Below are positions 1,437 through 63,200 of a stretch of 64,000 bases of DNA, one piece after another; the first letter of the stretch is position 1; every line of letters starts with the position of its first letter. Below the pieces are notes generated by a model that was not told the DNA's origin, did no database searches, and saw nothing but the letters and a program-made list of their open reading frames with translations. This DNA comes from Mucilaginibacter arboris (lineage in GTDB: Bacteria; Bacteroidota; Bacteroidia; Sphingobacteriales; Sphingobacteriaceae): the NCBI RefSeq assembly GCF_009754915.1, contig NZ_WPIK01000010.1, forward strand, positions 109,007 to 173,006, given 5' to 3'. The translations under genes were made by a program, and so were the position numbers.

Positions 1437-1459
1437 AATTTAAGTGATAAAAGAAGCAT
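1437..1459 (-). repeat. ATGCTTCTTTTA repeat, minus copy
   Basis: Exact 12-bp core at 1448-1459 with a T/A tail toward 1437. It fills most of the 38-bp gap before the Tat oxidoreductase and ends 9 bp before its ATG. Confidence 0.85.
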
Positions 1460-1468
1460 TTTATTCTC

Positions 1469-2896: not shown

Positions 2897-2924
2897 TAAC
2901 ATACTGTTTTTATGCACTAAAAAT

Positions 2925-3516: not shown

Positions 3517-4668
3517 ATGAGACTAAGATTAGGAATGATTGGTGGCGGACAAGGTGCTTTTATTGGTGCTGTTCATCGCATTGCTGCACGAATGGACGAT
3601 CAGTATGAATTAGTTTGTGGCGCTTTCAGCAGTGATCCTGCAAAATCAAAAGCAAGCGGTTTGTTACTAAATTTGCCCGACAATCGGATTTATAATTCCT
3701 GGCAGGAACTGATCGAAAAAGAAAAGCAACTTCCGGAAAACGAACGGGTACAGGTTATCAGCATTGTTACACCAAACCATGTCCATTTTGCACCTGCAAA
3801 AGAAGCATTGGAAAATGGTTTTCATGTTATCCTGGATAAACCTGCAACTTTTTCGCTTCAGGAAGCAAAAGACTTACAGCAAGTAATTGAACAAACCGGA
3901 AATCTTTTCTGCCTCACCCATACTTATACCGGTTATCCGATGGTAAAAGAAGCAAGGCAGATTGTTTTGTCTGGCAAACTTGGAAAAATCAGAAAAGTTT
4001 ATGTAGAATATCCGCAAGGCTGGTTAAGTAAATTTGAAGAAGGAACAGACAATAAACAAGCATCCTGGCGCACAGACCCGACAAAAAGCGGCATTGCCGG
4101 GGCAATGGGCGATATTGGCACACATGCTTTTAATTTATGCGAATATGTTTCCGGTTTACAAATTGAAAAGCTTTGTGCTGATATAAATATAATGGTACAA
4201 GGCCGTCAGTTAGATGATGACGGTGCCGTATTGTTAAAATTCAGCAACGGAGCAAGCGGTATTTTAGTAGCCACGCAAGTTGCTGCCGGAGAAGAAAACA
4301 ATGTTAAAATAAGAGTTTACGGAGAAAAAGGAGGATTAGAGTGGCAACAGGCAGATGCAAATACTTTAAAGGTAATGCTGCTCGACAAACCGGTAGAAAT
4401 CTGGCGTACGGGCGGAGGTTATACCAGTTCTTTTGCGCAACAAAATACACGGACACCTGCTGGCCATCCCGAAGGTTACCTGGAAGCTTTTGCCAATCTT
4501 TATAAAAATTTCGCTTTTACTATAAAAGCAGGTTTAGAAGGAAAAAAGCCTGAAAAAGAATGGTTGGATTTTCCGGGAATTGAAGAAGGCGTGCGCGGAA
4601 TGGCATTTATAGAAAACGTAATTGCTTCCGGCAAATCAGAAAAAAAATGGACTGATTTTACCATATAA
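3517..4668 (+). CDS. Gfo/Idh/MocA-family oxidoreductase, cytoplasmic
   Basis: Second sugar oxidoreductase, 383 aa. I chose the ATG at 3517 because translation from it begins 'MRLRLGMIGGGQGAFIG', a complete Rossmann GxGxxG-like start; an upstream in-frame ATG at 3400 would lie inside the previous gene. The catalytic motif reads 'VILDKPATFS' and the His of 'GDIGTHAFNL' fits the usual active-site histidine. There is no signal peptide, so it should act in the cytoplasm, unlike the Tat-exported paralogue at 1469. It starts 19 bp after the small subunit and ends 6 bp before the next isomerase. Confidence 0.88.
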   Translation: MRLRLGMIGGGQGAFIGAVHRIAARMDDQYELVCGAFSSDPAKSKASGLLLNLPDNRIYNSWQELIEKEKQLPENERVQVISIVTPNHVHFAPAKEALENGFHVILDKPATFSLQEAKDLQQVIEQTGNLFCLTHTYTGYPMVKEARQIVLSGKLGKIRKVYVEYPQGWLSKFEEGTDNKQASWRTDPTKSGIAGAMGDIGTHAFNLCEYVSGLQIEKLCADINIMVQGRQLDDDGAVLLKFSNGASGILVATQVAAGEENNVKIRVYGEKGGLEWQQADANTLKVMLLDKPVEIWRTGGGYTSSFAQQNTRTPAGHPEGYLEAFANLYKNFAFTIKAGLEGKKPEKEWLDFPGIEEGVRGMAFIENVIASGKSEKKWTDFTI

Positions 4669-4674
4669 TTTACT

Positions 4675-5727
4675 ATGACTACTTTATTAGGCCCAGCTAT
4701 ATTTTTAGCACAATTTATTGGTGATGAAGCACCTTTTAACAGTTTAGATGCTATTTGTCGCTGGGCTGCCGATCTTGGTTTTCAGGGCATCCAGTTACCT
4801 ACTAACAATGCTTCTTTTATCGACCTAAAATTAGCAGCAGAAAGTAAAACATATGCGGATGACTTGAAAGGAAAAGTAAATAGTTTCGGGTTAGAAATAA
4901 CGGAACTATCAACGCATTTACAGGGACAGTTAGTTGCTGTAAATCCTGTTTACGATACTTTATTTGATGCTTTCGCGCCTGAGCAATATCGTAACAATCC
5001 AAACGCCCGGAAAGAATGGGCAATTCAGCAATTAAAATATGCCGCAAAAGCATCACAGAATTTAGGATTAAAAGCACATGCTACTTTTAGCGGTGCTTTA
5101 TTATGGCCGATGGTTTATCCCTGGCCGCAACGGCCGGCTGGTTTGGTAGAAACTGGTTTTACAGAATTAGCAAATCGATGGTTACCTATTTTAAATGAGT
5201 TTGATGAATGCGGAATAGATTTATGTTATGAAATCCATCCGGGAGAAGACCTGCATGATGGCATAAGCTACGAAATGTTCTTGGAAAAAGTGAATAACCA
5301 TCCTCGTGCCTGCCTGCTTTATGATCCTTCGCATTTTGTATTGCAGTGTTTGGATTACTTGGCTTACATCGACAATTACCACGAACGCATTAAAATGTTT
5401 CATGTAAAAGATGCAGAATTTAACCCAACAGGAAAACAAGGCGTTTACGGCGGTTACCAAAATTGGATTGATCGTGCCGGCCGTTTCCGTTCTTTAGGCG
5501 ATGGCCAGGTTGATTTCAAAGCTATTTTTAGTAAAATGGCTGCTTACGATTACAAAGGCTGGGCAGTTTTAGAATGGGAGTGCGCACTTAAAAATCAGAA
5601 AGACGGCGCTAGGGAAGGGGCAGAATTTATCAGAAACCATATTATCCGGGTAACCGACAAAGCATTTGATGATTTTGCCGCTTCCGGTGCGGATGCTTCT
5701 TTTAACAGAACTTTATTAGGAATATAA
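4675..5727 (+). CDS. Sugar phosphate isomerase/epimerase (TIM barrel)
   Basis: AP-endonuclease-2-like TIM barrel of 350 aa, the family that isomerises sugars and keto-sugars with a divalent metal. Metal-ligand-type residues are visible in 'CYEIHPGEDLHDG', 'LLYDPSHFVLQ', 'KMFHVKDAEF' and 'AVLEWECALK'. No signal peptide. Only 6 bp separate it from the preceding oxidoreductase, suggesting translational coupling and action on the same sugar. The substrate cannot be read from the sequence. Confidence 0.86.
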   Translation: MTTLLGPAIFLAQFIGDEAPFNSLDAICRWAADLGFQGIQLPTNNASFIDLKLAAESKTYADDLKGKVNSFGLEITELSTHLQGQLVAVNPVYDTLFDAFAPEQYRNNPNARKEWAIQQLKYAAKASQNLGLKAHATFSGALLWPMVYPWPQRPAGLVETGFTELANRWLPILNEFDECGIDLCYEIHPGEDLHDGISYEMFLEKVNNHPRACLLYDPSHFVLQCLDYLAYIDNYHERIKMFHVKDAEFNPTGKQGVYGGYQNWIDRAGRFRSLGDGQVDFKAIFSKMAAYDYKGWAVLEWECALKNQKDGAREGAEFIRNHIIRVTDKAFDDFAASGADASFNRTLLGI

Positions 5728-6290: not shown

Positions 6291-7553
6291 ATGACTGCTG
6301 CTATCCGCACCAAGTTATCTGCCATGATGTTCCTGGAATTTTTTATCTGGGGCGGATGGTTTGTAACTTTAGGAACATATCTATTAAAAGACTTAAAAAC
6401 ATCCGGAATAGAAGTCGGTGCGGCTGTTACCACACAATCCATCGGCGCTATTGTTGCGCCGTTTATTATCGGTTTAATTGCCGATAAGTTTTTCTCCGCA
6501 CAAAAAATCCTGGGTGTTTTGCATTTATTAGGCGGGGCGCTGCTTTGGTGGGCATCAACAGCAACAAATTTCAGTTCTTTTTACCCGGTTATTTTAGTTT
6601 ACATGATTCTGTACATGCCAACGCTGGCATTGGTTAATTCTGTTTCTTTCCGGCAAATGCAAAACCCAAGTAAAGAATTTCCGCCAATCCGGGTATTAGG
6701 AACTATTGGATGGATCGTGGCAGGAGCATTAATCAGTTGGTTAAACTGGGACAAACAAGGCGGAGAAGCAGCATTGGTAAACACTTTTAAAATGGCTGCT
6801 ATTGCATCTGTTGTGCTTGGTTTATTCAGTTTTACGCTGCCTTCAACACCTCCTGTTAAACGTGGGGAAAGTACAACTATTGGCGAAATTTTAGGTTTGG
6901 ATGCTATCCGTTTGCTTAAAAACAGTTCTTATCTCATTTTTTTTATTGCTTCTATAGCCATTTGTATTCCGCTTGCATTCTATTATGGTTTTGCCAATCC
7001 TTTTTTCCAGGAAAAAGGCATGCAGGCAACAACGGTAACGCAATCACTTGGGCAGGTATCAGAAATATTATTTATGGTGATGATCCCTTTCTTTTTTGTA
7101 AGGTTAGGTGTTAAAAAAATGCTTGCTGTAGGAATGCTGGCCTGGGCTTTACGCTACGTTTTGTTTGCCTATGGCGATGCCAATTCCAATTACTGGATGC
7201 TAATTTTAGGTATTGTTTTACATGGCGTTTGTTATGATTTCTTCTTCGTTACCGGACAAATTTATACGGATAACCTGGCAGGAGAACGTTTTAAAAGTGC
7301 CGCCCAGGGTTTTATTACTTTAGCTACTTATGGTGTCGGAATGCTGATTGGTTCTTTAATTGCCGGACGTATTGTTGATCAATATAAAACATCAGAAACA
7401 GCCCATAACTGGCAAACCATTTGGCTGATACCGGCAGGAATAGCCGCAGTAGTTATGGTTTTGTTCCTCTTATTTTTTAGGGATAAAAACAGCATGGCAA
7501 CTGATCCTGCTTTGAACCTCGACGAGCAAAAAGATATGCGTTTAGATGTTTAA
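6291..7553 (+). CDS. MFS transporter, nucleoside:H+ symporter (NupG-like) family
   Basis: Inner-membrane permease of 420 aa with about 12 hydrophobic helices. The N-terminus 'KLSAMMFLEFFIWGGWFVTLG' and the charged loop 'IRVLGTIGWIVAGALISW' match the nucleoside permease (NHS) branch of MFS. Many Bacteroidota members sit in sugar loci rather than nucleoside loci, so here it probably imports the oxidised sugar or its cleavage product (inference). It is 34 bp after the cytochrome gene and 11 bp before the next isomerase. Confidence 0.85.
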   Translation: MTAAIRTKLSAMMFLEFFIWGGWFVTLGTYLLKDLKTSGIEVGAAVTTQSIGAIVAPFIIGLIADKFFSAQKILGVLHLLGGALLWWASTATNFSSFYPVILVYMILYMPTLALVNSVSFRQMQNPSKEFPPIRVLGTIGWIVAGALISWLNWDKQGGEAALVNTFKMAAIASVVLGLFSFTLPSTPPVKRGESTTIGEILGLDAIRLLKNSSYLIFFIASIAICIPLAFYYGFANPFFQEKGMQATTVTQSLGQVSEILFMVMIPFFFVRLGVKKMLAVGMLAWALRYVLFAYGDANSNYWMLILGIVLHGVCYDFFFVTGQIYTDNLAGERFKSAAQGFITLATYGVGMLIGSLIAGRIVDQYKTSETAHNWQTIWLIPAGIAAVVMVLFLLFFRDKNSMATDPALNLDEQKDMRLDV

Positions 7554-7564: not shown

Positions 7565-8446
7565 ATGGCATCAAAACAAAACCGCCGTTCTGCTATCAAA
7601 AACTTACTTGCCGGTACAGCAACTGTTGCTGCCGGCAGTACAATTGCTTCTTTTACCACACTAAAAATGGAACCCTTAGCACTTAAAGGAAACATCAATC
7701 ATTCGGTTTGCCGTTGGTGCTATAATGATTTATCGTTGGATGAACTTTGCATACAGGCAAAAAAAATCGGTATTAAAGGAATCGATCTGATCGGTCCAAA
7801 AGAATGGCCAATCCTGAAAAACCATGGAATGGATTCACCCATGTGCAACGGTGCCGAGATTAGTTTGACGGAAGGTTTCAACAATAAAAAATACCACGAA
7901 ACTTTGGTGAAGAATTATTCTGAGATGATTCCGCTGGTTGCAAAAGCCGGATACAAAAACCTGATCTGTTTCAGCGGAAGCAGGGAAGGTATGGATAACG
8001 AAACCGGCTGGAACAATTGTGTAGAAGGTTTAAAAAAAGTAATTGGCCTGGCCGAAAAACACAAAGTGGTGCTGGTAATGGAACTGCTAAACAGTAAAAT
8101 TAACCATAAAGATTACCAGTGCGACCGTACTTCATGGGGCGGAGAATTAGCTAAAAGAATGGGTTCTGAAAATTTTAAATTGCTGTTCGATATTTACCAC
8201 ATGCAAATTGACGAAGGCGATATCATCAGAAATATTACAGATTATCATCAATACATTGCGCATTACCATACTGGCGGCGTGCCGGGCAGAAATGAGATTG
8301 ATGATACTCAGGAATTATATTATCCGGCTATTATGCGGGCAATTGTAAAAACCGGCTTTAAAGGTTATGTGGCCCAGGAGTTTATTCCGAAGCAAAAAGA
8401 TAAAATTGCATCGCTAAAAAAAGCAATTGAAATATGTGATGTGTAA
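7565..8446 (+). CDS. Hydroxypyruvate isomerase-family TIM barrel, Tat signal
   Basis: Sugar isomerase of 293 aa. The N-terminus 'NRRSAIKNLLAG' is a twin-arginine signal, so it is probably periplasmic. The body is a hydroxypyruvate-isomerase-like TIM barrel with 'VVLVMELLNSKINHKDYQCD' (metal Glu), 'LLFDIYHMQIDEGD' (Asp and His), 'HYHTGGVPGRNEID' and 'VAQEFIPK'. The HPI-type 'YHMQ' and 'GR.E.D' motifs set it apart from the other barrels in this cluster. Its substrate is unlikely to be hydroxypyruvate itself; a keto-sugar is more plausible given the neighbours. Confidence 0.85.
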   Translation: MASKQNRRSAIKNLLAGTATVAAGSTIASFTTLKMEPLALKGNINHSVCRWCYNDLSLDELCIQAKKIGIKGIDLIGPKEWPILKNHGMDSPMCNGAEISLTEGFNNKKYHETLVKNYSEMIPLVAKAGYKNLICFSGSREGMDNETGWNNCVEGLKKVIGLAEKHKVVLVMELLNSKINHKDYQCDRTSWGGELAKRMGSENFKLLFDIYHMQIDEGDIIRNITDYHQYIAHYHTGGVPGRNEIDDTQELYYPAIMRAIVKTGFKGYVAQEFIPKQKDKIASLKKAIEICDV

Positions 8447-9367: not shown

Positions 9368-9390
9368 ATGCTTCTTTTATCTGCAAAAAA
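9368..9390 (+). repeat. ATGCTTCTTTTA repeat, plus copy
   Basis: Exact core at 9368-9379, then TCTGC and an A-run. The 33-bp gap between two co-directional genes is almost entirely this element. Its own ATG is in frame with the next gene, which could mislead start calling. Confidence 0.85.
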
Positions 9391-10176: not shown

Positions 10177-10199
10177 TTTTAGGCCGGTAAAAGAAGCAT
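10177..10199 (-). repeat. ATGCTTCTTTTA repeat, minus copy
   Basis: Exact core at 10188-10199; the tail reads CCGGCC then TAAAA on the minus strand. It lies in the 103-bp gap after the DUF1080 gene. Confidence 0.85.
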
Positions 10200-10826: not shown

Positions 10827-12537
10827 TCTTAATATAGACAGCATTAAGACACAAACTTTTGATGCTATTGTAATTGGTTCTGGAATGAGCGGTGGCTGGG
10901 CAGCAAAAGAACTGACCGGAAAAGGACTTAAAACGTTAATGATAGAACGGGGCCGGGATGTAAAGCATATTAAAGATTATCCAACTACAAACAAATATCC
11001 CTGGGAATTTGAACATCGCGGAGAAATTCCGCTGGATATTCGCGAAGCAAACCCTTCTGTAAGCAGGTGTTATGCTTTCCGTGAAGATGCGGAACATTTT
11101 TTTGTAAAAGATACAGACCATCCTTATGTTCAAACTAAACCTTTTGATTGGATCCGCGGCTATCAGGTTGGAGGAAAATCATTGCTTTGGGCAAGGCAAA
11201 CACAACGCTGGAGCGATTTTGATTTTGAAGGGCCTGCACGTGATGGTTTTGCTGTAGATTGGCCTATCCGTTATAAAGATATTGCTCCCTGGTATAGTTA
11301 TGTAGAAAAGTTTGCCGGTATTTCGGGAAACCGCGATGGTATTGATAATTTGCCTGACGGCGAATTTTTACCAGCTTATCCGCTTAGTTGTGTGGAAGAT
11401 TACTTTAAAAAACAAGTAAACGCTAACTATAAAAACAGGCATGTTATCAGTGCCCGTTGTGCGCATTTATCAAAACCCAACAAAATTCATTACGATCAGG
11501 GCAGAGGCCAATGCCAGAACCGGGTTTTATGCCAGCGCGGTTGCCCGTTTGGTGGATATTTTAGCGCAAATTCGTCAACTATTCCATGGGCAGAAAAATC
11601 GGGTAATTTAACCATGCGTACTAACGCAGTTGTGCAAGCTATAATTTACGATGAACAAAAAGGCAAAGCCACAGGTGTAAGGGTGATTGATGCCCACACT
11701 AAAGAAACAACAGAGTACTATGCTAAAATTATTTTTGTAAACGCAGCCGCCATCAATACTAATTTATTGTTGCTCAATTCAACTTCAAACCGTTTTCCAA
11801 ATGGTTTAGGTAATGATAGCGGTTTGTTAGGCAAATACGTTGCTTTTCATAACTATCGGGCAAGGATTAATGCAGAATACGATGGGTTTAAAGATCTGAC
11901 AATAGATGGCAGAAACCCCGCAGGCGGAGGTTACATGCCGCGTTTCAGAAATGTTTATAAACAGGAAACGGACTTTTTGCGCGGCTACGCAGCAGGTTTT
12001 GGTTCTTACAGAAGTTCTATTGCCGATTCAAAAGGCGTTGGCAGCAGTTTTAAAGAAAACATGCTGCATCCGCAATTATCGCCCTGGAAAGTTGGGTCGC
12101 ACATGATGGGGGAAACAATCCCAAAAGAAACAAACTTTGTAAGATTGGATAAAAACCGGAAAGACGATTGGGGAATGCCGCTGCTTGATATTTCTATCGC
12201 TTATGATGACAATGATGAAAAAATGGTGAAAGATTTCTTTGAACAGTTTACAGAAATGTACACCAAGGCTGGTTTTACAAATATCAAGATCAGTGATTCG
12301 CATCAGGCACCTGGTTTAGATATTCATGAAATGGGCGGCGTAAGAATGGGCAAAGACCCAAAAACCTCCCTGCTAAATAAATGGAACCAGTTGCACGAAT
12401 GCAAAAATGTTTTTGTAACGGATGGCGCCTGCATGACTTCCACTTCATCACAAAACCCTTCGCTTACTTATATGGCTTTAACTGCCCGCGCTGCTGATTA
12501 TGCTGTTGACCAGTTAAACCGGAAGGAACTGGCCTGA
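10819..12537 (+). CDS. GMC-family sugar dehydrogenase, catalytic subunit (complete)
   Basis: Flavin dehydrogenase of 572 aa. The N-terminal FAD motif is 'FDAIVIGSGMSGGWAAKEL' (about 14-32), the flavin-region segment 'GYQVGGKSLLWARQ' lies near 115, a Cys-rich loop 'CQNRVLCQRGCPFGG' near 235, and the C-terminal catalytic pair is the His of 'LDIHEMGGVRMG' and the Asn of 'SQNPSLTYMAL'. No signal peptide of its own is seen; in this family export by the Tat signal of the small subunit is the usual explanation and fits the 8-bp overlap with 10269-10826. It is a paralogue of the truncated gene at the window start. The stop codon overlaps the first base of a repeat element. Confidence 0.92.
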   Translation: MANLNIDSIKTQTFDAIVIGSGMSGGWAAKELTGKGLKTLMIERGRDVKHIKDYPTTNKYPWEFEHRGEIPLDIREANPSVSRCYAFREDAEHFFVKDTDHPYVQTKPFDWIRGYQVGGKSLLWARQTQRWSDFDFEGPARDGFAVDWPIRYKDIAPWYSYVEKFAGISGNRDGIDNLPDGEFLPAYPLSCVEDYFKKQVNANYKNRHVISARCAHLSKPNKIHYDQGRGQCQNRVLCQRGCPFGGYFSANSSTIPWAEKSGNLTMRTNAVVQAIIYDEQKGKATGVRVIDAHTKETTEYYAKIIFVNAAAINTNLLLLNSTSNRFPNGLGNDSGLLGKYVAFHNYRARINAEYDGFKDLTIDGRNPAGGGYMPRFRNVYKQETDFLRGYAAGFGSYRSSIADSKGVGSSFKENMLHPQLSPWKVGSHMMGETIPKETNFVRLDKNRKDDWGMPLLDISIAYDDNDEKMVKDFFEQFTEMYTKAGFTNIKISDSHQAPGLDIHEMGGVRMGKDPKTSLLNKWNQLHECKNVFVTDGACMTSTSSQNPSLTYMALTARAADYAVDQLNRKELA

Positions 12538-12560
12538 TGCTTCTTTTATGCCGATAATTT
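12537..12560 (+). repeat. ATGCTTCTTTTA repeat overlapping a stop codon
   Basis: Exact core at 12537-12548. Its first A is the last base of the TGA of the GMC gene. Confidence 0.85.
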
Positions 12561-13387: not shown

Positions 13388-13528
13388 GTGTTCATACTGT
13401 TTTTACCATGCTAATTTTGTACTGGTAAAAGCAGTATTTGTGTTTATATATACAAGCTTAAATTTCTATAATTGAAAAGCATTTCCTTTGATGCTAACCA
13501 ATCAATAAACCATTTTAATACTTAAATC

Positions 13529-14516: not shown

Positions 14517-14539
14517 TTTTTATGCCATAAAAGAAGCAT
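14517..14539 (-). repeat. ATGCTTCTTTTA repeat, minus copy
   Basis: Exact core at 14528-14539 with tail TGGCATAAAAA. It is the same 23-bp sequence as the copy at 18201-18223 on the other strand. Confidence 0.87.
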
Positions 14540-17266: not shown

Positions 17267-17290
17267 ATACTTCTTTTAATGGCAAAAAAT
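17267..17290 (+). repeat. ATGCTTCTTTTA repeat, variant copy
   Basis: ATACTTCTTTTA (one mismatch) with tail ATGGC and an A-run, in the 270-bp intergenic region between the esterase and a response regulator. Confidence 0.65.
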
Positions 17291-18048: not shown

Positions 18049-18746
18049 TCAGTTTAAGTTCTGTTTATTTTGATGTTTCTATCTAATTATTTTTCCAATC
18101 CGGCAAATTCTTTTTTTAATAATTGTGCCAGACTTGCAAGTTTGAAACAGATTATTTAATGTTAAAATTGTTACCGTTTTTCTGCTTGTACTTTTGTTTG
18201 ATGCTTCTTTTATGGCATAAAAATATATTTGCCATCCATTCCTATTTCTTTAAAAAAAGCTTCAGCTAAAAAGATTAAACTCCTGAAAAGATGGGCGTGT
18301 GCCTGCTCTTTTTTTACATAGGTTTGGTTTATGTTTTTACAATGATGCTGGTCCGGGTATCCAAGTTTAAACATTTTTTGCTGCCTCAGCTTTAATCTTC
18401 TATTGGGTTTTATTTTTAAGTTAAAACAGGTATTAATTCATTAATGCTAAAGTATTTATACGTCTGGCGGTTAAAAATACTTTTAGCAGTTTTGTATCAT
18501 TAACTGTTAAGAAAATGAAAGCGGGCCTAAAAAAAGTTTATCAGGCTTCTTAATTCCGAAACCACAACAATATTATTCATCACAACCTATCTGTATCGAT
18601 CCAATAAAGTCTGTAGAAAAGAAACCCTTACCTCAAAATTTTCTAAGCCTTTTAAGTGTTTCTTAATAAAACAGGTTTAACAATAGAACTAAGTATATCA
18701 AATTAAAAAATATTTGAAATCAGTTTTAACCCTAATTTAAAAAGTA
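18049..18746. other. 698-bp intergenic region
   Basis: I see no convincing gene here. It holds one repeat copy (18201-18223) and otherwise AT-rich sequence with stops in all frames at short range. A regulatory role for the response-regulator gene at 18747 is possible, but no promoter element stands out. Confidence 0.5.
18201..18223 (+). repeat. ATGCTTCTTTTA repeat, plus copy
   Basis: Exact core followed by TGGCATAAAAA. The inner part TTTTATGGCATAAAA is a near-perfect palindrome, best seen in this copy. Confidence 0.87.
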
Positions 18747-48274: not shown

Positions 48275-48331
48275 AAACAGGCGGTAAAAGAAGCATGGCA
48301 AAATGTTGCTGCTTCTTTTACCGGTTCAAAA
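48274..48331. repeat. Hairpin formed by two ATGCTTCTTTTA repeats
   Basis: An exact minus copy (48285-48296) and a plus copy (48309-48320, one mismatch) form a 14-bp perfect stem (48282-48295 with 48310-48323) around a 14-nt loop. It lies between two co-directional signalling genes, so it could attenuate cheR. Confidence 0.85.
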
Positions 48332-53177: not shown

Positions 53178-53200
53178 TTTTTATCCGGTAAAAGAAGCAT
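53178..53200 (-). repeat. ATGCTTCTTTTA repeat, minus copy
   Basis: Exact core at 53189-53200, tail CCGGATAAAAA, in the gap between convergent paoC and NRPS genes. Confidence 0.86.
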
Positions 53201-53237: not shown

Positions 53238-56200
53238 AAACAATTTTGCAATACTTGTGCAAATTCTTTATCGTTTGGAGGAGCAAAAATATAATTATGG
53301 TCTCCGGGGATTTCGTGAATGCGGACTCCTTTTAAAGCAAATTTGTCCCATCCCAGGTATTTAGGGTCTTCCATATAATACGTCCTCACTTTGGCACGGA
53401 AAAGATCAATAGTTCCATTATAAGGTGTAATATGATAATGTGCAGCAGCATTTTGGTTCATCCTGTCAATCTCGTTAGCATAACCAAAAAAACCAACCTG
53501 GTCTTTGCCTTTGGCCGGGTTTATTTTCCAGTAAAATTTGGTTACTTTTCTTTTGATCATCAGGGTTTTATACTTGTAAGTGCTAACCGGATTTTTGGCC
53601 AGCAGCACGAACGTATATAGAAAACGACAGTTATAATTCCAGATTTTATGAAGTAGCCGTACAGGCAAAGGATGAATGTACTTGGTTTGATCTGCATAAG
53701 AATCAAAAAGTGCCAGCATTTTTACTTCTTTGCCTAATTCCTGCAGTTGCTTTGCCATTTCGTAAGCAATCGTTCCGCCTAAAGAATAACCGGCCAACAT
53801 ATACGGCCCGTTTGGATTATGTTTGATGATCTCGCTTACATAATGTGCAGCTATATCTTCCAGCTTATCTAAAGGCTCATCAATGCCGTTTAAACCTTTT
53901 GCTTGTAAGCCGTAAACAGGCTGATCGGGATCCATGTAAGTAGCTAAAGTATTGAATAACAAAACATTTAGTCCGGCGCCATGAACCATATAAAGCGGTG
54001 CTTTGCTGCCTTTTGGCCTGATAGGGACCAGGGAATCCCATGTAATAGATTTTCCATCCATTTGCAGCAGTAGTGACAATGATTCGATGGTGGAAGATTC
54101 AAATAGCGATGCAAGTGGCAAACGTTGTCCGGTTTCTTTTTCCAGCAAATTCATAATCTTAACTGCTGTAAGCGAATGTCCGCCGATCTCAAAAAAGTTA
54201 TCGTAAATACTAATGGCAGGAAGCCCGAGAACCTCGCACCAGATATCTGATACTAATTTTTCTACATCTGTTCTCGGTGCAATAAAACCAGAAATAGTTT
54301 CAGTTGGTACTGCCGTACCTGGCAAAGCATTAGGTTTAGGTAAAGCCTGCCGGTCTATTTTATTATTTGGCGTTAGCGGTAATGCAGGCAGGATTACAAT
54401 TTGTGCCGGTATCATAAAAGGGGGCAGTACTTCTTTTAAGGCAGATTTCCATTGATGTATCCATTGCTTTTCGTCGTATTTTTTTACATGAGGCGCAACA
54501 ACATAAGCTACCAGTTGCTGGTTCCCGGGCTGGTCTTCGCGCGCTATTGCTACAACCTGAGTGATGTGTTCCTGATAAGAAAGCCGGGCTTCTATTTCGC
54601 CCAATTCTACCCGATGGCCTCTTATTTTAACCTGATGGTCTGCACGTCCTAAAAACTCAATTTCACCATTTGATAAAAAGCGTCCAACATCTCCGGTACG
54701 GTACATTTTTTTACCGGAAACACCGCTAAAAATATCATCAGGAAAACGCGTTGCTGTTAAGCCGGGCTGGTTTAAATAACCTCTTGCAACGCCATCTCCT
54801 GTAATAAATATTTCGCCGATTTCACCTTCCGGAAGCAGGCCTAAATGTTCATCCAGAATGTAAATTTGTGTGTTATCAATAGGGCGGCCAATAGTAATCA
54901 GCTCATCCGTATTAATATGTTTTCCGGTAGAGTAAATGGTTGTTTCGGTAGGGCCATACATATTCCATAAACCGGAACATAAAGTAGTTAAATTTTTAGC
55001 CAGATCAGGCTGCAAAGCTTCTCCGCAGCAAAAAATCCGTACAGGTAATTTTTCTTTCCATCCGGAAGCAATTAACAAACGAAAGGTAGCCGGAGTGGCC
55101 TGTATCAAACTTACTTTAGCTGCTTTTATCAGCTTTAATAATTCGTCACCATTTTTTGCGGTTTTTGTATCTGCCAAAACCATTTCCGCACCGCAAATTA
55201 ATGGCAGAAAAAGTTCCAGCCCGGCAATATCAAAAGAAATAGTCGAGATGGCCAGCATCCGGTCTTCAGCAGAAATACCCGGCCATTTCCGGATACTGTT
55301 TAGCAAATTAACAATGTTATGATGCTCTATCAGAACGCCTTTTGGTTTACCGGTTGAACCAGAAGTATATAACACGTAAGCCAGATCTGAACCTTTAATT
55401 TCTACATTTGGTTCTTCTGCCGAAAACTGATTTAATTGTGGTAATATCTCTTCCAGCAGCATTTCTTCTGCAGGAGATACAAACTGTCCTTTATATTTCT
55501 GATTAACGAGTAATAGTTTGGCTTCAGAATCCTCCAGCATGTAATTGATGCGTTCCTTCGGATAAGTAGGATCAAGCGGAATATAAGCCGCACCTGTTTT
55601 CATTACAGCCAATATGGTTAATACCATTTCTATCGAACGGTCTAATGCTACACCAACTAAATCGCCTTGCCTGATGCCTTTTTTAAGGAGCAAAGCGGCC
55701 AGTTGGTTGGATTTTGACAACAGTTCGCCGTTGGTGATAGAAGTATGATGAAAGTGGATTGATGTTTTTACCGCATGCTTTTTTAGGCTTTGGCTGATTA
55801 ATACCGGAAGCGCTTCTTTCGGATAAACCGCAAACGTATTGTTCCATTTTTTTAACTGTTTGCTTAAAACGTTTTTCGAGGGAAGGCTGATACTGCTGAT
55901 TGAACGATCAGGTTCCTGTGAAATAACCTGTAACAGCATTTCAAAGCTTTCCATCATCCAGCGGATAGTTCCTGCTTTAAAAAGTTGGGTATTGTATGAC
56001 CATTCCAGCGTTAATTCCTGTTCTGATCCGCTTGCGTTTAAAAATATCTCAAAAGTTTCGTAAGCGCGCGGATTGTAATGCAAACGATGGGTTAAGCTTT
56101 CAAACTTAACGCCATCGTCCATATTCATATCCATGTTAAATACAATGGGCGCAAGCGGAATACGGGAAGGATCACGAGGAAACTGAAGCAGTTTAAGCAG

Positions 56201-57268
56201 GCTGCCTAAACTTAATTGCTGATGTTCCAGTGCATCCAGGATTTCTGTTTTTCGTTGTTTGAGATAGGTGTTAAAAGTTGATGCTTCTTTTAGCACACTT
56301 TTTATAGGAAGTAAGTTTACACAATGTCCGGTCAGGCCATAATAACCACTTGCTGCCTGCCCGGCTGCCGGAAGCCCGAGCACTACTTCTTCCTGTCCGT
56401 TTATTTTATGCAGCAAAACTTCAAAAGCCGAAAGCAGTGTGACAACAAAACTACAACCTTTTTTAGCGCCTGTTTTTTTTATGGCCGAGGTAAGTTCAGG
56501 ACTTAATTTAAAATCGTCACGCTGACTTTTATAAGTTCGGGAAGCAGGCCGGGGATAATCTGTCGGTAATTCTGTAACAGGTATTTTTCCGTCAAATTGG
56601 TTTAACCAAAACTGTTTGGTTTGCTGATAAGCTTTGGATCCCGAAAACTGCAACTGTTCGTTAATGTAGTTGCTCATTTGCGGCACTTCCGTCAATTTGG
56701 GTTCTCGCCCTTGCTGGTAAGCAACGTAAAGTTTGCTTAAATCCTGTAACAGAATCCCTAACGACCAGCCATCACAAATAATATGGTGCGCACTAAACGT
56801 AAAATAATGTTCCTGCGGAGCAAGTTTGAAAAGCGTAGTACGAAACAGCGGACCGTTTTCTAAATCGTAAACCTGTTGGGCTTCCTGCTGCAAAAACTGT
56901 TTTATAAATACTTGCTGTTCTTGCTCTTTTTGATTGGATAAATCCTTGTAAATAAGATTTAAAGGATAGCTTCTGTAAATTAAAATTTCAGTTCCATCGC
57001 TTTTAAAATTACTGCGTAAAGATTGGTGCCGAAGGATCAAATCCTGTAAAGCAAGCTGCAGTGAGTTTTGGTCCAGGCAGCCTTTCACGTTTAAAGAAAC
57101 AGATTCGTTATAACAACGGTTGGCATCATCACCACCAAGCTTGCAGGAAAGCCAGATTTCTTCCTGCGGTTTTGCCAGGGGAATAGACAATTCAATTTCG
57201 GGCCCTGAAAAAGGATCGAAATCAACCGGTTCTAAATAGTAAGGTTCTGTAGCTGTGTTCAAATTCAA
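53222..57268 (-). CDS. Nonribosomal peptide synthetase: C-A-T-TE
   Basis: Terminal synthetase of 1348 aa. Condensation domain (about 20-460) with 'SAHHIICDGWSL' (HHxxxDG, about 158-168); adenylation domain (about 480-980) with 'YVLYTSGSTGKPKGV' and 'NKIDRQALP'; carrier with Ser in 'IGGHSLTAVK' (about 1032); thioesterase with Ser in 'AGYSLGGTIAY' (about 1162) and a late His in 'IPGDHNYIF'. The ten-residue adenylation code reads by eye as DILTFCMIYK, close to no code I know. The start is TTG inside a TTGA overlap with the upstream gene's stop, so translation is coupled. It adds one amino acid and releases the product. Confidence 0.92.
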   Translation of the reverse strand: MNLNTATEPYYLEPVDFDPFSGPEIELSIPLAKPQEEIWLSCKLGGDDANRCYNESVSLNVKGCLDQNSLQLALQDLILRHQSLRSNFKSDGTEILIYRSYPLNLIYKDLSNQKEQEQQVFIKQFLQQEAQQVYDLENGPLFRTTLFKLAPQEHYFTFSAHHIICDGWSLGILLQDLSKLYVAYQQGREPKLTEVPQMSNYINEQLQFSGSKAYQQTKQFWLNQFDGKIPVTELPTDYPRPASRTYKSQRDDFKLSPELTSAIKKTGAKKGCSFVVTLLSAFEVLLHKINGQEEVVLGLPAAGQAASGYYGLTGHCVNLLPIKSVLKEASTFNTYLKQRKTEILDALEHQQLSLGSLLKLLQFPRDPSRIPLAPIVFNMDMNMDDGVKFESLTHRLHYNPRAYETFEIFLNASGSEQELTLEWSYNTQLFKAGTIRWMMESFEMLLQVISQEPDRSISSISLPSKNVLSKQLKKWNNTFAVYPKEALPVLISQSLKKHAVKTSIHFHHTSITNGELLSKSNQLAALLLKKGIRQGDLVGVALDRSIEMVLTILAVMKTGAAYIPLDPTYPKERINYMLEDSEAKLLLVNQKYKGQFVSPAEEMLLEEILPQLNQFSAEEPNVEIKGSDLAYVLYTSGSTGKPKGVLIEHHNIVNLLNSIRKWPGISAEDRMLAISTISFDIAGLELFLPLICGAEMVLADTKTAKNGDELLKLIKAAKVSLIQATPATFRLLIASGWKEKLPVRIFCCGEALQPDLAKNLTTLCSGLWNMYGPTETTIYSTGKHINTDELITIGRPIDNTQIYILDEHLGLLPEGEIGEIFITGDGVARGYLNQPGLTATRFPDDIFSGVSGKKMYRTGDVGRFLSNGEIEFLGRADHQVKIRGHRVELGEIEARLSYQEHITQVVAIAREDQPGNQQLVAYVVAPHVKKYDEKQWIHQWKSALKEVLPPFMIPAQIVILPALPLTPNNKIDRQALPKPNALPGTAVPTETISGFIAPRTDVEKLVSDIWCEVLGLPAISIYDNFFEIGGHSLTAVKIMNLLEKETGQRLPLASLFESSTIESLSLLLQMDGKSITWDSLVPIRPKGSKAPLYMVHGAGLNVLLFNTLATYMDPDQPVYGLQAKGLNGIDEPLDKLEDIAAHYVSEIIKHNPNGPYMLAGYSLGGTIAYEMAKQLQELGKEVKMLALFDSYADQTKYIHPLPVRLLHKIWNYNCRFLYTFVLLAKNPVSTYKYKTLMIKRKVTKFYWKINPAKGKDQVGFFGYANEIDRMNQNAAAHYHITPYNGTIDLFRAKVRTYYMEDPKYLGWDKFALKGVRIHEIPGDHNYIFAPPNDKEFAQVLQNCLNQSA

Positions 57269-60200
57269 TTATTTTGTTTAACCTGCAAAAATTTGTCTTT
57301 ATGTTCCGGGTGTGCTATAAACCAGGCCGTGTTTCCATTTTTATCTTTTCCAAGCCTTGCACCCGGAATTGGCGGTGCTTCTTTTACCATACTTTTTTGC
57401 AGTTGGTTCCTGGTTTCGTTAAATCCTAAAAAACCTGCTGCCGCCAGTTCTAATGCACTTTCTTCAAAAATTTTAGCTATGCGGTTTACTTCTTCCTTTG
57501 TATGTGCCTGGGTTAAAAAACAAGGAAAATTATCCCAGATATGGATTCCTTTCATTCGCATCAGGGTAAACAGCAGTTCGTTATGTTTGTATTCGTGTTT
57601 AAATTTAATCTTCCATAAAGAACCAAAACTTGCAATGTAGATGGGCAACTGATGTTCGTTACAAGTTTTGTTCATTGCTTCTGCCAGCCTGCTGGTTTCG
57701 GCATTGATCTTTTTTTGTAAGTCCGGGCCTTGTTCTTTTAAGTAGTTTAAAGTGGCTTTAGTAGCAGCCAGCGTTAGCGGATGGCGTACAAAAGTTCCGG
57801 CAAAATAAGTAACGCCGGCTTCGGGTGTAGAATCGTCTCCGTATTGCCAGAAACCTCCGTCAAGCGCATCCATTAAAAGTTTTTTGCCTGCAATTACACC
57901 AATTGATAATCCGCCGCCAATTACTTTTCCATACGTTCCCAAATCTGCTTTTATGCCAAACAAAGCCTGCGCGCCGCCCGGATGCATCCGGAAACCGGTA
58001 ATTACCTCATCAAAAATTAATGGCGTGCCTGCTTCTTCGGTAATTTGCCGTAGTTCTTTTAAAAATTCTATTGGCTGAAATTCCGGCCTTCGGCTTTGTA
58101 CCGGTTCTACCAAAACAGCAGCCAGTTCGTGTACCCTTTCTTTAATAATTTTTAAAGATTCATCTGTTCCGTAATCCAGGATCAGCATGTTTTGAACTGC
58201 TTCCGGCATAATTCCTGGTGCTGCCGGAAAAGACTTCAGTTTTTTTGTTCCGCGAACAATTACTTCATCAACAATCCCATGATAAGAACCCGAAAAAGCA
58301 ACAATGAGCGGGCGGCCTGTAACGGTCCGGGCAATACGCATCGCACCTAAAACAGCTTCAGAACCGGTATTGCATAAAGCAGCACGATCTGCACCGGTAA
58401 ATTCGCAAATAAGCTGGCTTACTTCTCCTGCAAGTTGATGTTGCGGACCGATTTCATATCCGTTTTCTAATTGTTCCTGTAAAGCTTTTTTGACGAAATC
58501 AGGCTGATAACCTAAAAAATTACTGCCGAAACCATTCAAAGCATCAATATACTCATTGCCATCTACATCCCATAAATGGCTACCTTTGGATTTATTAACT
58601 ACAAGTGGATAAACAATTTCTTTAGTAGCAGGACTAAACCCGGAAACAACACGCGGATCGGCCATAAAAGCACGGTTTTCCTGAGCTTGGGCTTTACTTT
58701 TTGCTGTTTTTTGATTGTATTGTTTGATGAGGTTCTTTAAAAAATCCCGTTGCAGCACACTAAGTTCTTCTTTTTCTTTTTGGATGCGTGCCGTTGCGCC
58801 AAATGGTTTTTTAATTTCTGCTGCTTCTTCTGCAGATAATTGCAGCTCAACAGGTTTCTGTTCCGCAGCAACAAATACTTCTTTTATCCCTGTTTTTTTA
58901 TCATCCTGCAATAAATTTATTTGCTGGGAAATCAGTTGGATTTGCTGAGCTAATAAGTTTAAAACAGAATTGTCCTGGCCAGAATTTGTGGATTGAATTG
59001 GAACAGAAAAACTTGGCATCTGCTGAACTACTTCTTCCTGAAAAGCTTCTTTTGGCAGCTTTGTTTCTAAATAGGCAGCCAGTAATTCTATCGTATCAAA
59101 CTGCTCGTTCAGATTACGGAAAGAAACAGGTACATTAAATTTTTTAGTTAATGAAAGCGAGATTTGTGTAAGCAAAAGCGAATCAAAGCCCATTTCTATA
59201 AATGTGCAATCCGGCTGCATTTCCTGCAGTTCAATTCCCGAAGCATCATAAAGAATGGTTTTAATTTGTTCTGATAACTTATTTATTTTCATTACTTTAG
59301 GTTGTTCAGGTTGAATTTTTTGTGCTTTAATATTTTCCTGTTGTAATAATGGCCCAGCATCAGTTTTAAATGCTGTAGAAATTGGGTTTGCCCAGCACTT
59401 TTTATAATCGTAAGCGTAAGGCGGAAGCTGGAGCTTTCTTCTGATTTGCCCGCTGTAAAAGGCTTTCCAATCTGGTTTAAAACCTTCTGCCCATAATTGT
59501 CCAAGCACTTTCAGCATTCCGGCGTATACAGATTCTTTTTCTCCGGTTGGTGCTACTGCACTGGCAAACATTGCATTTTTGTTTACACATTGCTGCCGAA
59601 CTAAAGGCGCTAAAGCATTGCCGGGACCAACGCCAATCAGGAAGTTATGCTGATCAATGAGCAAAGTATCTACAGCATCAGCAAATAAAACCGTATTGCG
59701 GATATGAGCCGACCAGTAACCTGCAGATGTTGCTTCTTCCGGTTTAAGCCAGGTTCCGGTAACGGTAGAAACTATTGGTGTTTTAGGAGGATTTAAAGCG
59801 ATGGTTTTTACCACTGCTTCAAACGGTTTCAGGATCGGATTCATCAAGGCAGAGTGGAAAGCATGTTTGTTTTCCAGCAATCGGCCCGGAATTTCCTGCT
59901 CATTTAATTGGGTGCTAAAAGAAGCAATAGCTTCATCTTCCCCAGATACAACCATAATATCCCGGCTGTTAACTGCTGCGATAGATAGGCTTGCTGGTAA
60001 AATTTTTTCCAGTTTTTGTTGGGAGATTTTGACCGCAAGCATACTTCCGCCAGGCAAAACCTGCATTAGTTTACAACGTGCAACTACTAATTTTAAGGCA
60101 TCTTCCAGGCTAAAAACCCCTGCTAAATGTGCTGCCATAAACTCGCCCAAACTGTGCCCGGCTACACTTTCAGGCTGCAATCCCCAGCTTAACCATAATT

Positions 60201-63200
60201 TAGCCATTGCATATTGCATGGTAAAAACAGCAGGCTGGGCATATAAAGTTTGTTTTAGTTTTTCTGCGGAGGCAGGGCCGGAAGAATCAGGATAAATAAT
60301 ATTTCGGATATCTTCGCCTAATTCCTGTTTCAGCCAAATGGCGCATTCATCAACTGCATCCCGGAAAACACTTTCCTGCTGATATAATTCCAGGTTCATG
60401 TTAACAGATTGAGAACCTTGTCCCGGAAACAGAAATGCTACTTTTAACCGGTTATTTTGAAGGTTTTTTTGTGCAGGTTTTACAGCTGCGAGTTCCAGTT
60501 TCTCCTGCAAATCCTGTACATCAGAAACAACTAAAAAATCACGGAAATTAAAATCCTGCCGGGTATGATGAAGCGTGTAAGCAATATCTGCAGCAGCAGT
60601 TTCCGGATACTTATCGATATAATCAATTAAACTTTTTGTATAATTTTGTAAACTGTCTTCTGTTTTGGCCGACCAAGTGATTAAACAAGCTGGTTTTGGT
60701 GCTGTTTCTTCAATTGGCGTTTGCAGATATTCCTGCATAATTACATGCACATTTGTTCCGCCAACACCAAAAGAACTTATGCCTGCAAAGCGTGCTTCTT
60801 TTACCTGCCAATTTTTTAATTCTGTATTTACAAAAAACGGACTATGCTCAAAATCGATATTCGGGTTAGGCCGATTATAATTAATAGAAGCCGGAATTTG
60901 CTGATAATGCAAAGCCAAAGCAGTTTTGATAAACCCAGCAACGCCGGCAGCCGCCGTTAAATGGCCAAAATTGCTTTTTACAGAACCAATTGCACAAAAT
61001 TGCAGATCAGTTTGCTTTCCGAAAGCCAGTTTTAAACCTTCTATTTCTATCGGATCGCCAATTGGCGTTGCTGTTCCGTGTGTTTCAATATAGGAAATAG
61101 AAGCTGCGTCAACTTGTGCATTGGCCAATGCCATTGCAATTGCATTTGCCTGTCCTTCTGCACTTGGTGCTGTAAAACTGCTTTTGCCGGAGCCATCGTT
61201 ATTTACGCCTGCTCCTTTTAGCACTGCAAAAATAGTATCGCCGTCACGCTCTGCATCTTCCAGGCTTTTTAAAAGTACCACGCCTGCGCCATCGCTAAAA
61301 ACGGTTCCCTGTGCGTTAGCATCAAAAGGGCGACAATGTCCGTCTTTGCTAAACATCGCGCCTTCCTGATATAAACTTCCGCTTTTTAAAGGAGAAGTTA
61401 TGGCAGATGCTCCGGCTACAGCAACAGAACATTGACCATTTCGGATACTTTCTGCTGCCTGTGTTATCGCTAACAAACCAGTAGAACAGGCAGCATAAAC
61501 GCTAACTGCCGGTCCTTTTAAATTCAGTTCGTAAGCGGTCCTGCTGGCAATGTAATCTTTTTCGTTCAAAGCCATTACCTGGAAAGTGCCTACATTTTCA
61601 ACCTTTTCTGTATTTGTAAATACGTTATTTTGATAATAGCTGTTGTTTCCTGATCCTGCAAAAACACCAGTTGTTCCTGAAAATTTTTCCGGCAAATGTC
61701 CGGTTGTTTCCAGCACTTCGCGCGCTAATTCCAGGAAAACCCTTTGTTGCGGGTCCATCAATTCAGCAGCTTTTGGGTTGATGCCAAAAAAGGAAGCATC
61801 AAACTCATCAGCATGATCAATTAAACCTCTGGCTTTAACATAATCAGGATTATTTTTTAAAGTTGAAGGAATAGCCGGATCGAGTTCATCATCCGTAAAA
61901 AAACTGGTGGTTTCTTTGCCGTTTTTCAGAATCTCCCAAAACTCACCTATATTGTTTGCCCCGGGAAAACGGCAAGCCATTCCAATTACAGCAACCTCCC
62001 GGCCAATGCTTCTTTTACCGGTGTTTTTTTGTGTTATGATGGAAGTATCTCCACCTGAAAAATATTTAGCAATGCCGCTGATGGTTGGAAATTGATAAAG
62101 TTTTGCTACCGGCAACTGGTATTGCCATTGCTCTTTTAAAGCAGCAATGCTTTTTAAAGCCAGTAACGAGTTTCCGCCAAGTTCAAAAAAGCTATCTTCT
62201 GTGCCTATTTCGTTCAGTTGTAATAAAGCTTCCCAGTTGGCTGCAATTCTTTTTTCGGTTTCTGTTGAAGGTGCTTTGTAAAATGATGTTAGTTCCGGCC
62301 GTTTAAAATCTGGTTTTGGCAAAAGCTTTTTATCAACTTTACCGCTGCTGGTAAATGGTAGTTCTTTTAGCCAGATAAAAGCAGCAGGCATCATGTAATC
62401 AGGAAGTTTTTGGGCTATGATTTGCCTTAAAACTGTTGTATCCTGCTGGTTTCCGGAAGCAACCAGATAAGCAACTAACCTGGTTAAACCCGGAACATCT
62501 TCCCACGCAACCACAACCGATTGTTTAACTGCTGCTGATTGGTTAAGCAGTGTTTCTATTTCTCCCGGCTCAATCCGGTAACCTCTAATTTTTATCTGAT
62601 GGTCTATCCGTCCCAAAAACTCAATCTCTTTGTTCGGCTGAATTCTGGCCAGGTCGCCGGTACGGTAAATGCGCAATGCTTCTTTTACCGGATGATTTAT
62701 GATTGGAAATTTTTCCTGATTAAGTTCTGGCTGATTGAGATAACCTTCTGCAATGCATTTTCCACTTAAACAAAGTTCGCCAGTTTCGCCATCTGCAACT
62801 TGATTTAATTCTTCATCCAGAATCAAAACTTCTACCTCGTCAATAGCTGTTCCGATAGAAGGTAAAGAAGGCCAGTTTTGCGGATCTTCGGCTAACTTTA
62901 ATTGTGTTACCACGTGGCATTCTGTTGGCCCGTACTGGTTAAACAAAACACAGCCGGGCAAAGAGTTAAAAAACTGCCTGATTTGCGGCGTAATTTTTAA
63001 CTGTTCTCCGGCAGTCATCACTTCCTGTAAAAAAGGCGGAAAAATTTTGCCGGAAACCGCAGCTTCCGTTAAATATTGTAAAGCAACAAAAGGTAAAAAC
63101 AGACGGTTTATTTGCTTGTCCTGAAGGAATTGCAACAGTAAATTTGGATTAAGCCGTTCGTTATCTGTCAACAGCACTAAATGCCCGCCAGTACAAAGCG

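What the first reader, a model, noticed from the sequence alone, without database searches (positions are those of the whole stretch)
1448..62687. A 12-bp word, ATGCTTCTTTTA, recurs 28 times: possible DNA-uptake sequence
Seen: 28 exact copies on both strands: 24 in non-coding gaps (12 plus, 12 minus) and 4 in genes, plus several one-mismatch copies. With about 60% AT composition roughly 0.02 are expected in 64 kb. Most intergenic copies continue T/C, 4-5 variable C/G-rich bases, then TAAAA, so a conserved core is followed half a helical turn later by an A/T tract. Known: Neisseria DUS and Pasteurellaceae USS are abundant 9-12-bp words without strand bias, with A/T flanks, often as inverted pairs at gene ends. 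Inference: this could be an uptake sequence of a competent Bacteroidota. Alternatives are a REP-like mobile hairpin (the inner TTTTA-N5-TAAAA is palindromic) or a regulator site.
Basis: partly seen in the sequence, partly recalled or inferred. Interest (0 to 1): 0.85.

Follow-up and report, generated by a model that had tools for sequence, protein, structure and literature searches.

The report
DNA-uptake word in a pilus-less Bacteroidota
A 12-letter DNA word occurs 1,100 to 2,100 times in each of three genomes of one unnamed genus of Sphingobacteriaceae bacteria, inside and between genes and in two interchangeable spellings; it is likely the tag by which these bacteria would recognise and take up DNA of their own kind, a habit so far described in two other bacterial families that use a pilus not found here.

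Summary
In detail: 30 exact copies in the window (0.04 expected), 1,947 in the genome, 2,114 and 1,118 in the two other genomes of the genus, at most 9 in each other genome scanned. The full motif is (A)TRCT[TC or GT]TTTTA, then YCRSN, then an A/T tract without TpA steps 19-22 bp from the core start. The tract may be A's or T's, so it is a double-strand (shape) signal, not a hairpin. Copies show no strand bias, the exact word is about 15 times denser between genes, yet 402 of 818 sampled sites (both spellings) lie in genes; they are not insertions, tend to even spacing, form close inverted pairs, and 131 of 174 alignable sites are kept in a sister species (12% for random 11-mers), 16 of them in the other spelling. 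These match the sequence hallmarks of Pasteurellaceae USS and Neisseriaceae DUS. ComEC, DprA and ComEA-like proteins are present; type IV pilus ATPase and pilins were not found. REP/RAYT, KOPS/Chi, promoter and terminator readings fail tests. Uptake is untested and the reader protein unknown; an HhH-plus-beta-barrel protein beside comEC is the candidate channel. Best reading: an independently evolved, pilus-free DNA-uptake sequence (0.72).

The parts
1448..1459 (-). exact word
4808..4819 (+). exact word, in gene 4675-5727
5693..5704 (+). exact word, in gene 4675-5727
9368..9379 (+). exact word; its ATG is the first start codon of ORF 9368-10165, my gene call starts later
10188..10199 (-). exact word
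12537..12548 (+). exact word
14528..14539 (-). exact word
18201..18212 (+). exact word
20012..20023 (-). exact word
20691..20702 (+). exact word
22935..22946 (+). exact word
22990..23001 (+). exact word
23695..23706 (-). exact word
23765..23776 (+). exact word
25690..25701 (+). exact word
25772..25783 (-). exact word
28439..28450 (-). exact word inside a longer repeat
35360..35371 (+). exact word, in ResIII gene 34612-37284; no A/T tract
38141..38152 (-). exact word, T-type tract
38319..38330 (+). exact word inside a longer repeat
40041..40052 (+). exact word inside a longer repeat
40353..40364 (+). exact word inside a longer repeat
42284..42295 (+). exact word
43151..43162 (-). exact word
43365..43376 (-). 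exact word
48285..48296 (-). exact word, T-type tract
53189..53200 (-). exact word
56281..56292 (+). exact word, in gene 53222-57262
62006..62017 (+). exact word, in gene 57265-63807, T-type tract
62676..62687 (+). exact word, in gene 57265-63807
548..558 (-). GT spelling (TRCTGTTTTTA), in gene
2902..2912 (+). GT spelling
3944..3954 (-). TC spelling, preceded by T, in gene
7484..7494 (-). GT spelling, in gene
7645..7655 (+). TC spelling, preceded by T, in gene
13395..13405 (+). GT spelling
17268..17278 (+). TC spelling with A at position 3
19968..19978 (+). TC spelling with A at position 3
29094..29104 (-). GT spelling
38673..38683 (+). TC spelling, in longer repeat
44940..44950 (-). TC spelling, in gene
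45766..45776 (-). GT spelling, in gene, T-type tract
46989..46999 (-). TC spelling, in gene
47760..47770 (-). GT spelling, in gene
48310..48320 (+). TC spelling, inverted pair with 48285
48937..48947 (+). TC spelling, in gene
50645..50655 (-). TC spelling, in gene
50843..50853 (-). GT spelling, in gene
52948..52958 (+). GT spelling, in gene
54428..54438 (+). TC spelling, in gene
57376..57386 (+). TC spelling, in gene
58876..58886 (+). TC spelling, in gene, T-type tract
59916..59926 (-). TC spelling, in gene
60222..60232 (-). GT spelling, in gene
60793..60803 (+). TC spelling, in gene

Best explanation
The word is a genome-wide double-stranded DNA signal, mostly kept at the same places between two species of one Sphingobacteriaceae genus, that likely works as a DNA-uptake sequence: a surface protein would bind it on free DNA and so favour uptake of DNA from the same genus. 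Shown: the motif (12-bp core in two interchangeable spellings plus an A/T tract roughly 1.5 helical turns downstream), its abundance, its placement in and between genes, its origin by substitution and not insertion, and its retention. Inferred: that uptake bias plus homologous recombination drives and maintains the copies, as proposed for Haemophilus and Neisseria. Further inferred: since type IV pilus genes were not found, the DNA would cross the outer membrane by another route, for which the 682-aa helix-hairpin-helix plus beta-barrel protein encoded next to comEC is the best candidate channel; the protein that reads the word is not identified.
For: Abundance without strand bias: 982/965 in G000, 1055/1059 and 598/520 in the two genus relatives; backwards-word control 0-1 per strand. 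Extended motif with random flanks. Tract TpA-free on either strand at 354 of 416 intergenic and 285 of 402 coding sites, against about 10% and 7% of random positions. In genes and between genes. Of 174 alignable sites of G000 contig C1, 131 remain a site in G002 (115 same spelling, 16 other), 32 are lost by substitution, 11 meet a gap; random 11-mers are identical in 12%. Coding sites are gap-free against proteins of other genera in 61 of 64 (random 1173 of 1246), amino-acid identity 0.40 there against 0.59. Spacing tends to be more even than chance, and 41 inverted stand against 5 direct pairs within 30 bp (pair counts). ComEC, ComEA-like HhH proteins, DprA, HhH-barrel beside comEC. The same hallmarks are listed for USS/DUS in PMC1626085 and PMC7811141 (passages); two coexisting dialects in Simonsiella muelleri in PMC3630211 (passages).
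Against: No uptake or competence has been measured in this genus. Type IV pilus ATPase (PF00437; only sub-cut-off matches in long frames of G000 and G002) and N-methyl pilins (PF07963) were not found in the three genus genomes while present in 7 of 21 and 5 of 17 genomes searched, yet both known uptake-sequence systems use a type IV pilus. The Riemerella surface-protein domain DUF5689 was not found in the genus either. No reader protein was found. ComEC and the HhH-barrel also occur in word-free sister genera, so they do not explain why only this genus has the word. The evenness test was significant for both statistics on G000 contig C1 but for one of two in G002. One of the two RAYT loci (L153) has more words around it than average, 3 exact and 2 near-forms in 3.3 kb. 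Conservation alone would also fit a chromosomal binding site.
Confidence: 0.72

Rival explanations
1. The word is the binding site of an abundant intracellular, sequence-specific DNA-binding protein (nucleoid organiser, chromosome-structure or recombination factor) peculiar to this genus.
For: A double-strand motif with a shape-sensitive A/T tract, conserved in place and tending to even spacing, would fit such a protein; no uptake machinery specific to the genus was found.
Against: No polarity, unlike KOPS or Chi; I recall no known bacterial chromosomal site of this length at about 0.9 sites per kb with half of them in genes (recalled, not searched). Coding copies sit where the protein sequence differs more than usual from other genera, which a useful site need not do; this is weak evidence.
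Confidence: 0.15
2. The word belongs to REP-like mobile hairpins spread by a RAYT transposase.
For: G000 has two Y1_Tnp genes; TTTTA-N5-TAAAA can pair in the commonest spelling; one of the two loci, L153, has 3 exact words and 2 near-forms in 3.3 kb.
Against: 141 of 818 sites have TTTT where the pairing arm should be AAAA, and TpA steps are avoided, a duplex feature; 402 of 818 sites are in genes; change is mostly by substitution and coding sites are not insertions; both Y1_Tnp genes are flanked on both sides by unrelated palindromes.
Confidence: 0.02
3. The word is a regulator site or an intrinsic terminator.
For: Convergent gene pairs carry most sites per kb and sites in tandem gaps lean to the upstream gene's end; close inverted pairs could form terminator stems.
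Against: Orientation to genes in tandem gaps is near balance (75 same, 57 opposite in G000; 53 and 53 in G002), divergent (promoter) gaps have the lowest density, half of the sampled sites lie in genes, and only 11 of the 353 neighbouring-site intervals on contig C1 are convergent pairs within 30 bp. Use as terminator parts is a known side role of DUS/USS (PMC3630211 and PMC5217627, passages).
Confidence: 0.05
4. A polar recombination or segregation signal (Chi- or KOPS-like).
For: Thousands of short words per genome.
Against: No strand bias: 982/965 genome-wide and 90/78 within contig C1, intermixed.
Confidence: 0.02

Closest known systems
Haemophilus influenzae / Pasteurellaceae uptake signal sequence (USS)
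   Same: Short core plus downstream A/T tract(s) about a helical turn away, with rigid narrow-groove tracts; close to 1 copy per kb; no orientation bias; more regular than random; close inverted pairs; enriched between genes but many in genes; not insertions (PMC1626085, PMC7811141, passages).
   Different: Unrelated sequence; 12-bp core in two interchangeable spellings in one genome; one clear tract, on either strand; Bacteroidota host without detected type IV pilus genes; uptake not tested.
Neisseriaceae DNA uptake sequence (DUS) and its dialects
   Same: Clade-limited word in thousands of copies, related dialects, two dialects in one genome (Simonsiella muelleri), inverted pairs linked to terminators (PMC3630211, passages).
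   Different: Bound by the pilin ComP of a type IV pilus (PMC3630211, PMC7811141, passages); no flanking motifs (PMC1626085, passages). Neither pilus ATPase nor N-methyl pilins were found here.
Riemerella natural transformation (Flavobacteriales)
   Same: Bacteroidota competence with ComEC, DprA, ComF, RecA, an HhH protein and a predicted outer-membrane protein as essential genes, the unfamiliar ones without homologs in known uptake machines (PMC8459023, abstract, sections 19-20 and passages); R. columbina prefers its own DNA (PMC7965970, section 16).
   Different: k-mer counts up to 10 bp there listed only A/T-rich words and left an uptake sequence open; its DUF5689 protein family was not found in this genus.
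REP elements with RAYT
   Same: Many short intergenic copies; Y1_Tnp genes in the genome.
   Different: No hairpin requirement, many copies in genes, no insertion, and the RAYT genes are flanked by other palindromes.

Membership tests
DNA-uptake sequence (USS/DUS) | fragments with the word are taken up preferentially | not testable with these tools
   needs an uptake assay
DNA-uptake sequence (USS/DUS) | about one copy per kb over the whole genome, clade-limited | tested here: met
   1,947 exact copies in 4.16 Mb; at most 9 in each of 57 genomes outside the genus; 1,629 extended copies against at most 9 in each of 394 class genomes. Both spellings: 409 sites in 460.8 kb of G000
DNA-uptake sequence (USS/DUS) | no orientation bias | tested here: met
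   982/965
DNA-uptake sequence (USS/DUS) | favours non-coding DNA but many copies in genes | tested here: met
   136 of 198 exact copies in the 12% non-coding DNA of the G000 sample; 402 of 818 sites of both spellings in genes
DNA-uptake sequence (USS/DUS) | arises by substitution, not insertion | tested here: met
   32 of 43 sites not kept differ by substitution, 11 meet a gap; 61 of 64 coding sites gap-free
DNA-uptake sequence (USS/DUS) | more regular spacing than random | tested here: inconclusive
   C1: P 0.008 and 0.002; G002: P 0.18 and below 0.001
DNA-uptake sequence (USS/DUS) | closely spaced inverted pairs | tested here: met
   41 inverted against 5 direct within 30 bp
DNA-uptake sequence (USS/DUS) | inner-membrane and cytoplasmic transformation genes present | tested here: met
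   ComEC, HhH/ComEA-like, DprA; these are also present in word-free relatives
DNA-uptake sequence (USS/DUS) as known, pilus-borne | type IV pilus with a reader pilin | tested here: not met
   PF00437 above cut-off and PF07963 not found in G000, G001, G002
REP/RAYT | palindromic hairpin flanking a RAYT gene, extragenic | tested here: not met
KOPS / Chi | strand polarity along the replichore | tested here: not met
transcription-factor regulon | sites sit at promoters | tested here: not met
   divergent gaps have the lowest site density; half of sampled sites in genes

The most novel reading that the evidence does not exclude
A Bacteroidota genus has evolved, independently of Pasteurellaceae and Neisseriaceae, a sequence-specific DNA-uptake system without a type IV pilus: a bipartite word (12-bp core in two coupled spellings plus a rigid A/T tract) is read at the surface by a non-pilin receptor, and DNA enters through a helix-hairpin-helix/beta-barrel outer-membrane protein encoded with ComEC.
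Probability: 0.45. Interest if true: 0.92.

Novelty: new variant of a known kind. Interest (0 to 1): 0.82.

Why it matters
Strong uptake-sequence preference is described for two families, Pasteurellaceae and Neisseriaceae, both pilus-based (PMC7811141, passages). A third, unrelated origin in another phylum and without a detected pilus would separate what the DNA signal needs (core plus rigid tract) from what the pilus needs, and would give a handle on how Bacteroidota without a pilus bring DNA through the outer membrane. The word makes this testable: competition assays and pull-downs with a 30-bp oligo, and comparison of receptor candidates between this genus and its word-free sisters.

Tried and rejected
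Polarity: the hit list looked polar on contig C1 because the list was cut and minus hits are missing from it; the sequence itself shows 90/78 intermixed. REP/RAYT: rejected. Hairpin: rejected. Riemerella-type surface protein DUF5689: not found. Type IV pilus: not found. A density contrast between conserved and non-conserved DNA was uninformative: similar densities, and most 'non-syntenic' DNA is one 139-kb stretch whose counterpart was not fetched. Sister genera: no word of comparable excess in 20-60 kb samples of 9 genomes, apart from a REP-like repeat in G017; small samples could miss a rarer word. Viral contigs: 6 stretches with one match each to the extended pattern; one scan only. Printed precedent for an uptake sequence in Bacteroidota was not found in the searches (open-licence papers only; listings, with passages or sections of six papers read: PMC7965970, PMC8459023, PMC7811141, PMC1626085, PMC5217627, PMC3630211). 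Gene calls are my own ORF/hexamer caller, not a standard annotation. The first ortholog comparison (12-mer only) is superseded. A comparison of protein sites with other genera pools G000 and G002, so orthologous sites count twice in part.
Full report
OBSERVATION. The window holds 30 exact copies of ATGCTTCTTTTA, 18 on + and 12 on -, where dinucleotide shuffles give 0.04. The window lies in G000, a 4.16-Mb draft genome with 982 + and 965 - copies; the word read backwards gives 1 and 0. Two genomes of the same genus have 1055/1059 and 598/520 copies; 57 other genomes of the family and class have at most 9 each. A 14-base extended pattern, TRCTTCTTTTAYCR, occurs 1,629 times in G000 and at most 9 times in each of 394 other genomes drawn from the class (partly the same genomes as).

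ORGANISM. A named collection gave a locus from 'Sphingobacteriaceae bacterium isolate Lichen_MAGs_lobaria3' (L033) that lies in a genome (G060) with the same size and the same match coordinates as G002, the same-genus relative. The host is therefore an unnamed genus of Sphingobacteriaceae; a habitat is hinted at only by the name of that lichen assembly.

MOTIF. A logo of 198 exact copies from 460.8 kb of G000 (window plus contig C1, 11% of the genome) shows little signal beyond about 10 bp upstream and 30 bp downstream, so copies are not parts of one longer repeat. Downstream come Y, C, R, S, N and then an A/T tract. One-mismatch forms are rare except at positions 1 and 3 and, weakly, 7. A second spelling, TRCTGTTTTTA, coexists: TRCT-TC-TTTTA 299 and TRCT-GT-TTTTA 110 in the G000 sample, with the single-step intermediates TT 33 and GC 20 (odds ratio about 50). 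With YCR attached the GT spelling occurs 420, 541 and 508 times in the three genus genomes and at most 6 times in each of 57 others.

A DUPLEX SIGNAL. Among 818 sites of both spellings (460.8 kb of G000 and 460 kb of G002) the four tract positions read AAAA 335, TTTT 141, AAAT 63, AATT 61, ATTT 39, but TTAA 2, TATA 0 and ATAT 4 (21, 29 and 45 expected from independent columns). TpA-free A/T tracts are found at 354 of 416 intergenic and 285 of 402 coding sites, against about 10% and 7% of 15,000 random positions each. Runs of A on either strand without TpA steps mean a rigid, narrow-groove duplex (established knowledge of A-tracts), and argue against the TTTTA/TAAAA hairpin as the required form. 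Mora et al. report the same shape preference for the AT-tracts of the Haemophilus USS (PMC7811141, passages).

PLACEMENT. With my own gene calls (88%, 84% and 89% coding for C1, window and G002 stretch) 136 of 198 exact words in G000 are intergenic, about 15 times the coding density; of the GT spelling 69 of 110 are in genes. Convergent gaps have the most sites per kb (4.9 in G000, 6.5 in G002), divergent the least (2.8, 2.6), tandem 3.9 and 3.5, with sites in tandem gaps leaning to the upstream gene's end; orientation to the genes in tandem gaps is 75 same to 57 opposite in G000 and 53 to 53 in G002. Within 30 bp, 41 neighbouring pairs are inverted and 5 direct (P = 4e-8). Spacing tends to be more even than in 1,000 placements keeping the coding/non-coding split: on C1 P = 0.008 and 0.002, in G002 P = 0.18 (bin variance) and below 0.001 (gap CV).

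ORIGIN AND UPKEEP. Of 174 sites of G000 contig C1 in blocks alignable with G002, 115 keep the spelling, 16 have the other spelling, 32 are lost by substitution and 11 meet a gap; in the reverse direction the figures are 116, 16, 33 and 13 of 178. A random 11-mer in those blocks is identical in 12% of cases. Sites outside alignable blocks were not counted. Of 279 site-bearing proteins of G000 and G002, 43 had a hit of 40% identity or more in the DNA of other Bacteroidota genera on hand; of their 68 coding sites 4 lay outside the alignment, 61 had no gap and 3 a gap, like random positions (1173 of 1246 without a gap), so they are not insertions. Amino-acid identity at the sites is 0.40 against 0.59 elsewhere in the same alignments (orthologous sites of the two genomes count twice in part). 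So words either lie in, or have changed, less conserved protein stretches. Two spellings widen the choice of encoded residues; Frye et al. discuss the same for two DUS dialects in Simonsiella muelleri (PMC3630211, passages).

MACHINERY. ComEC is present in G000, G001 and G002 and in 29 of 31 genomes searched, DprA in 9 of 9, HhH_3 proteins in 25 of 25, with a frame of 307 aa holding two HhH_3 matches in G000. Type IV pilus/type II secretion ATPase PF00437 is above cut-off in 7 of 21 genomes but in none of the genus; G000 and G002 have only weak matches below cut-off in frames of 650 and 924 aa. N-methyl pilins are found in 5 of 17, none of the genus. DUF5689, the domain of a Riemerella protein essential for transformation (PMC8459023, sections 19-20), is in 22 of 60 genomes, none of the genus. 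Three bases before comEC ends a gene for a 682-aa protein (G000 C78, L222:17947-19995, minus strand) with a weak HhH_3 match (E 0.019; the G003 ortholog 1.9e-9). Its predicted structure (mean pLDDT 73.9, pTM 0.71) has helices between 45 and 117 and two dozen long strands from 139 to the end, and resembles outer-membrane barrels such as MtrB, FimD and TonB-dependent receptors, at query-normalised TM-scores below 0.4, so only the fold class is supported. Orthologs sit beside comEC in the four sister genera examined (41-45% identity), so the protein is a candidate channel, not the cause of the genus-only word. A gene (265 aa in G003; weakly PorV-like, below NCBIfam's cut-off) that precedes it in those four sisters was not found at the G000, G001 and G002 loci.

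RIVALS. Two Y1_Tnp (RAYT-family) genes exist, but each is flanked on both sides by its own palindromic repeats, unlike the word. At one of them (L153) 3 exact words and 2 near-forms also lie within 3.3 kb, more than the average of about 1.4 exact words; the other locus has one. Polarity is absent, against KOPS or Chi. Promoter and terminator readings do not fit placement, except that some close inverted pairs may serve as terminator stems, as known for USS and DUS. A genus-specific chromosomal binding protein is the serious rival and cannot be excluded by sequence.

VERDICT. By sequence the word meets the listed hallmarks of uptake sequences (frequency, no orientation bias, inverted pairs, non-coding preference with many genic copies, non-insertional origin, and in part regularity; PMC1626085, passages). 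Uptake is untested and the pilus used by both known systems was not found. I therefore claim that it likely works like an uptake sequence, in a new host phylum and with another entry route, and do not file it as a member of the pilus-borne USS/DUS systems.

Noticed in passing
window 28301-40660: A family of longer repeats (up to 194 nt, 60-100% alike, with 'GGTTCTTTTTGxTCAAGCAAAAAGAAC' and 'AACCGCAGGTTTGC' parts) lies on both sides of a ResIII-domain restriction gene (34612-37284); several copies carry the word.
   Followed up: partly
window 29989-30240: Tandem array of 21-bp units (TTTCCTTTAAGTACTTTGGCA-like) beside the restriction gene region.
   Followed up: no
L153 1033-1919 and L154 1241-2214 (G000 C56 and C83): Both Y1_Tnp genes are flanked by their own palindromic repeats, REP-RAYT-like arrangements with two different repeat families.
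   Followed up: partly
L178-L180 (G017): A genome of a sister genus is rich in CGTCATTGCGAGG, a REP-like word, 18 copies of TCGCAATGACG counted in 60 kb on both strands.
   Followed up: no
contig C1 of G000 and C1 of G002: All 10 convergent word pairs with a 6-bp gap have the GT spelling on the left, 6 of them with the TC spelling on the right and 4 with GT; TC/TC palindromes with this gap were not seen.
   Followed up: no
L222 17947-19995 and L227 4158-6966: Next to comEC, four sister genera have a weakly PorV-like gene followed by an HhH plus beta-barrel gene; the window's genus keeps the barrel, with a much weaker HhH match, but the first gene was not found there.
   Followed up: partly
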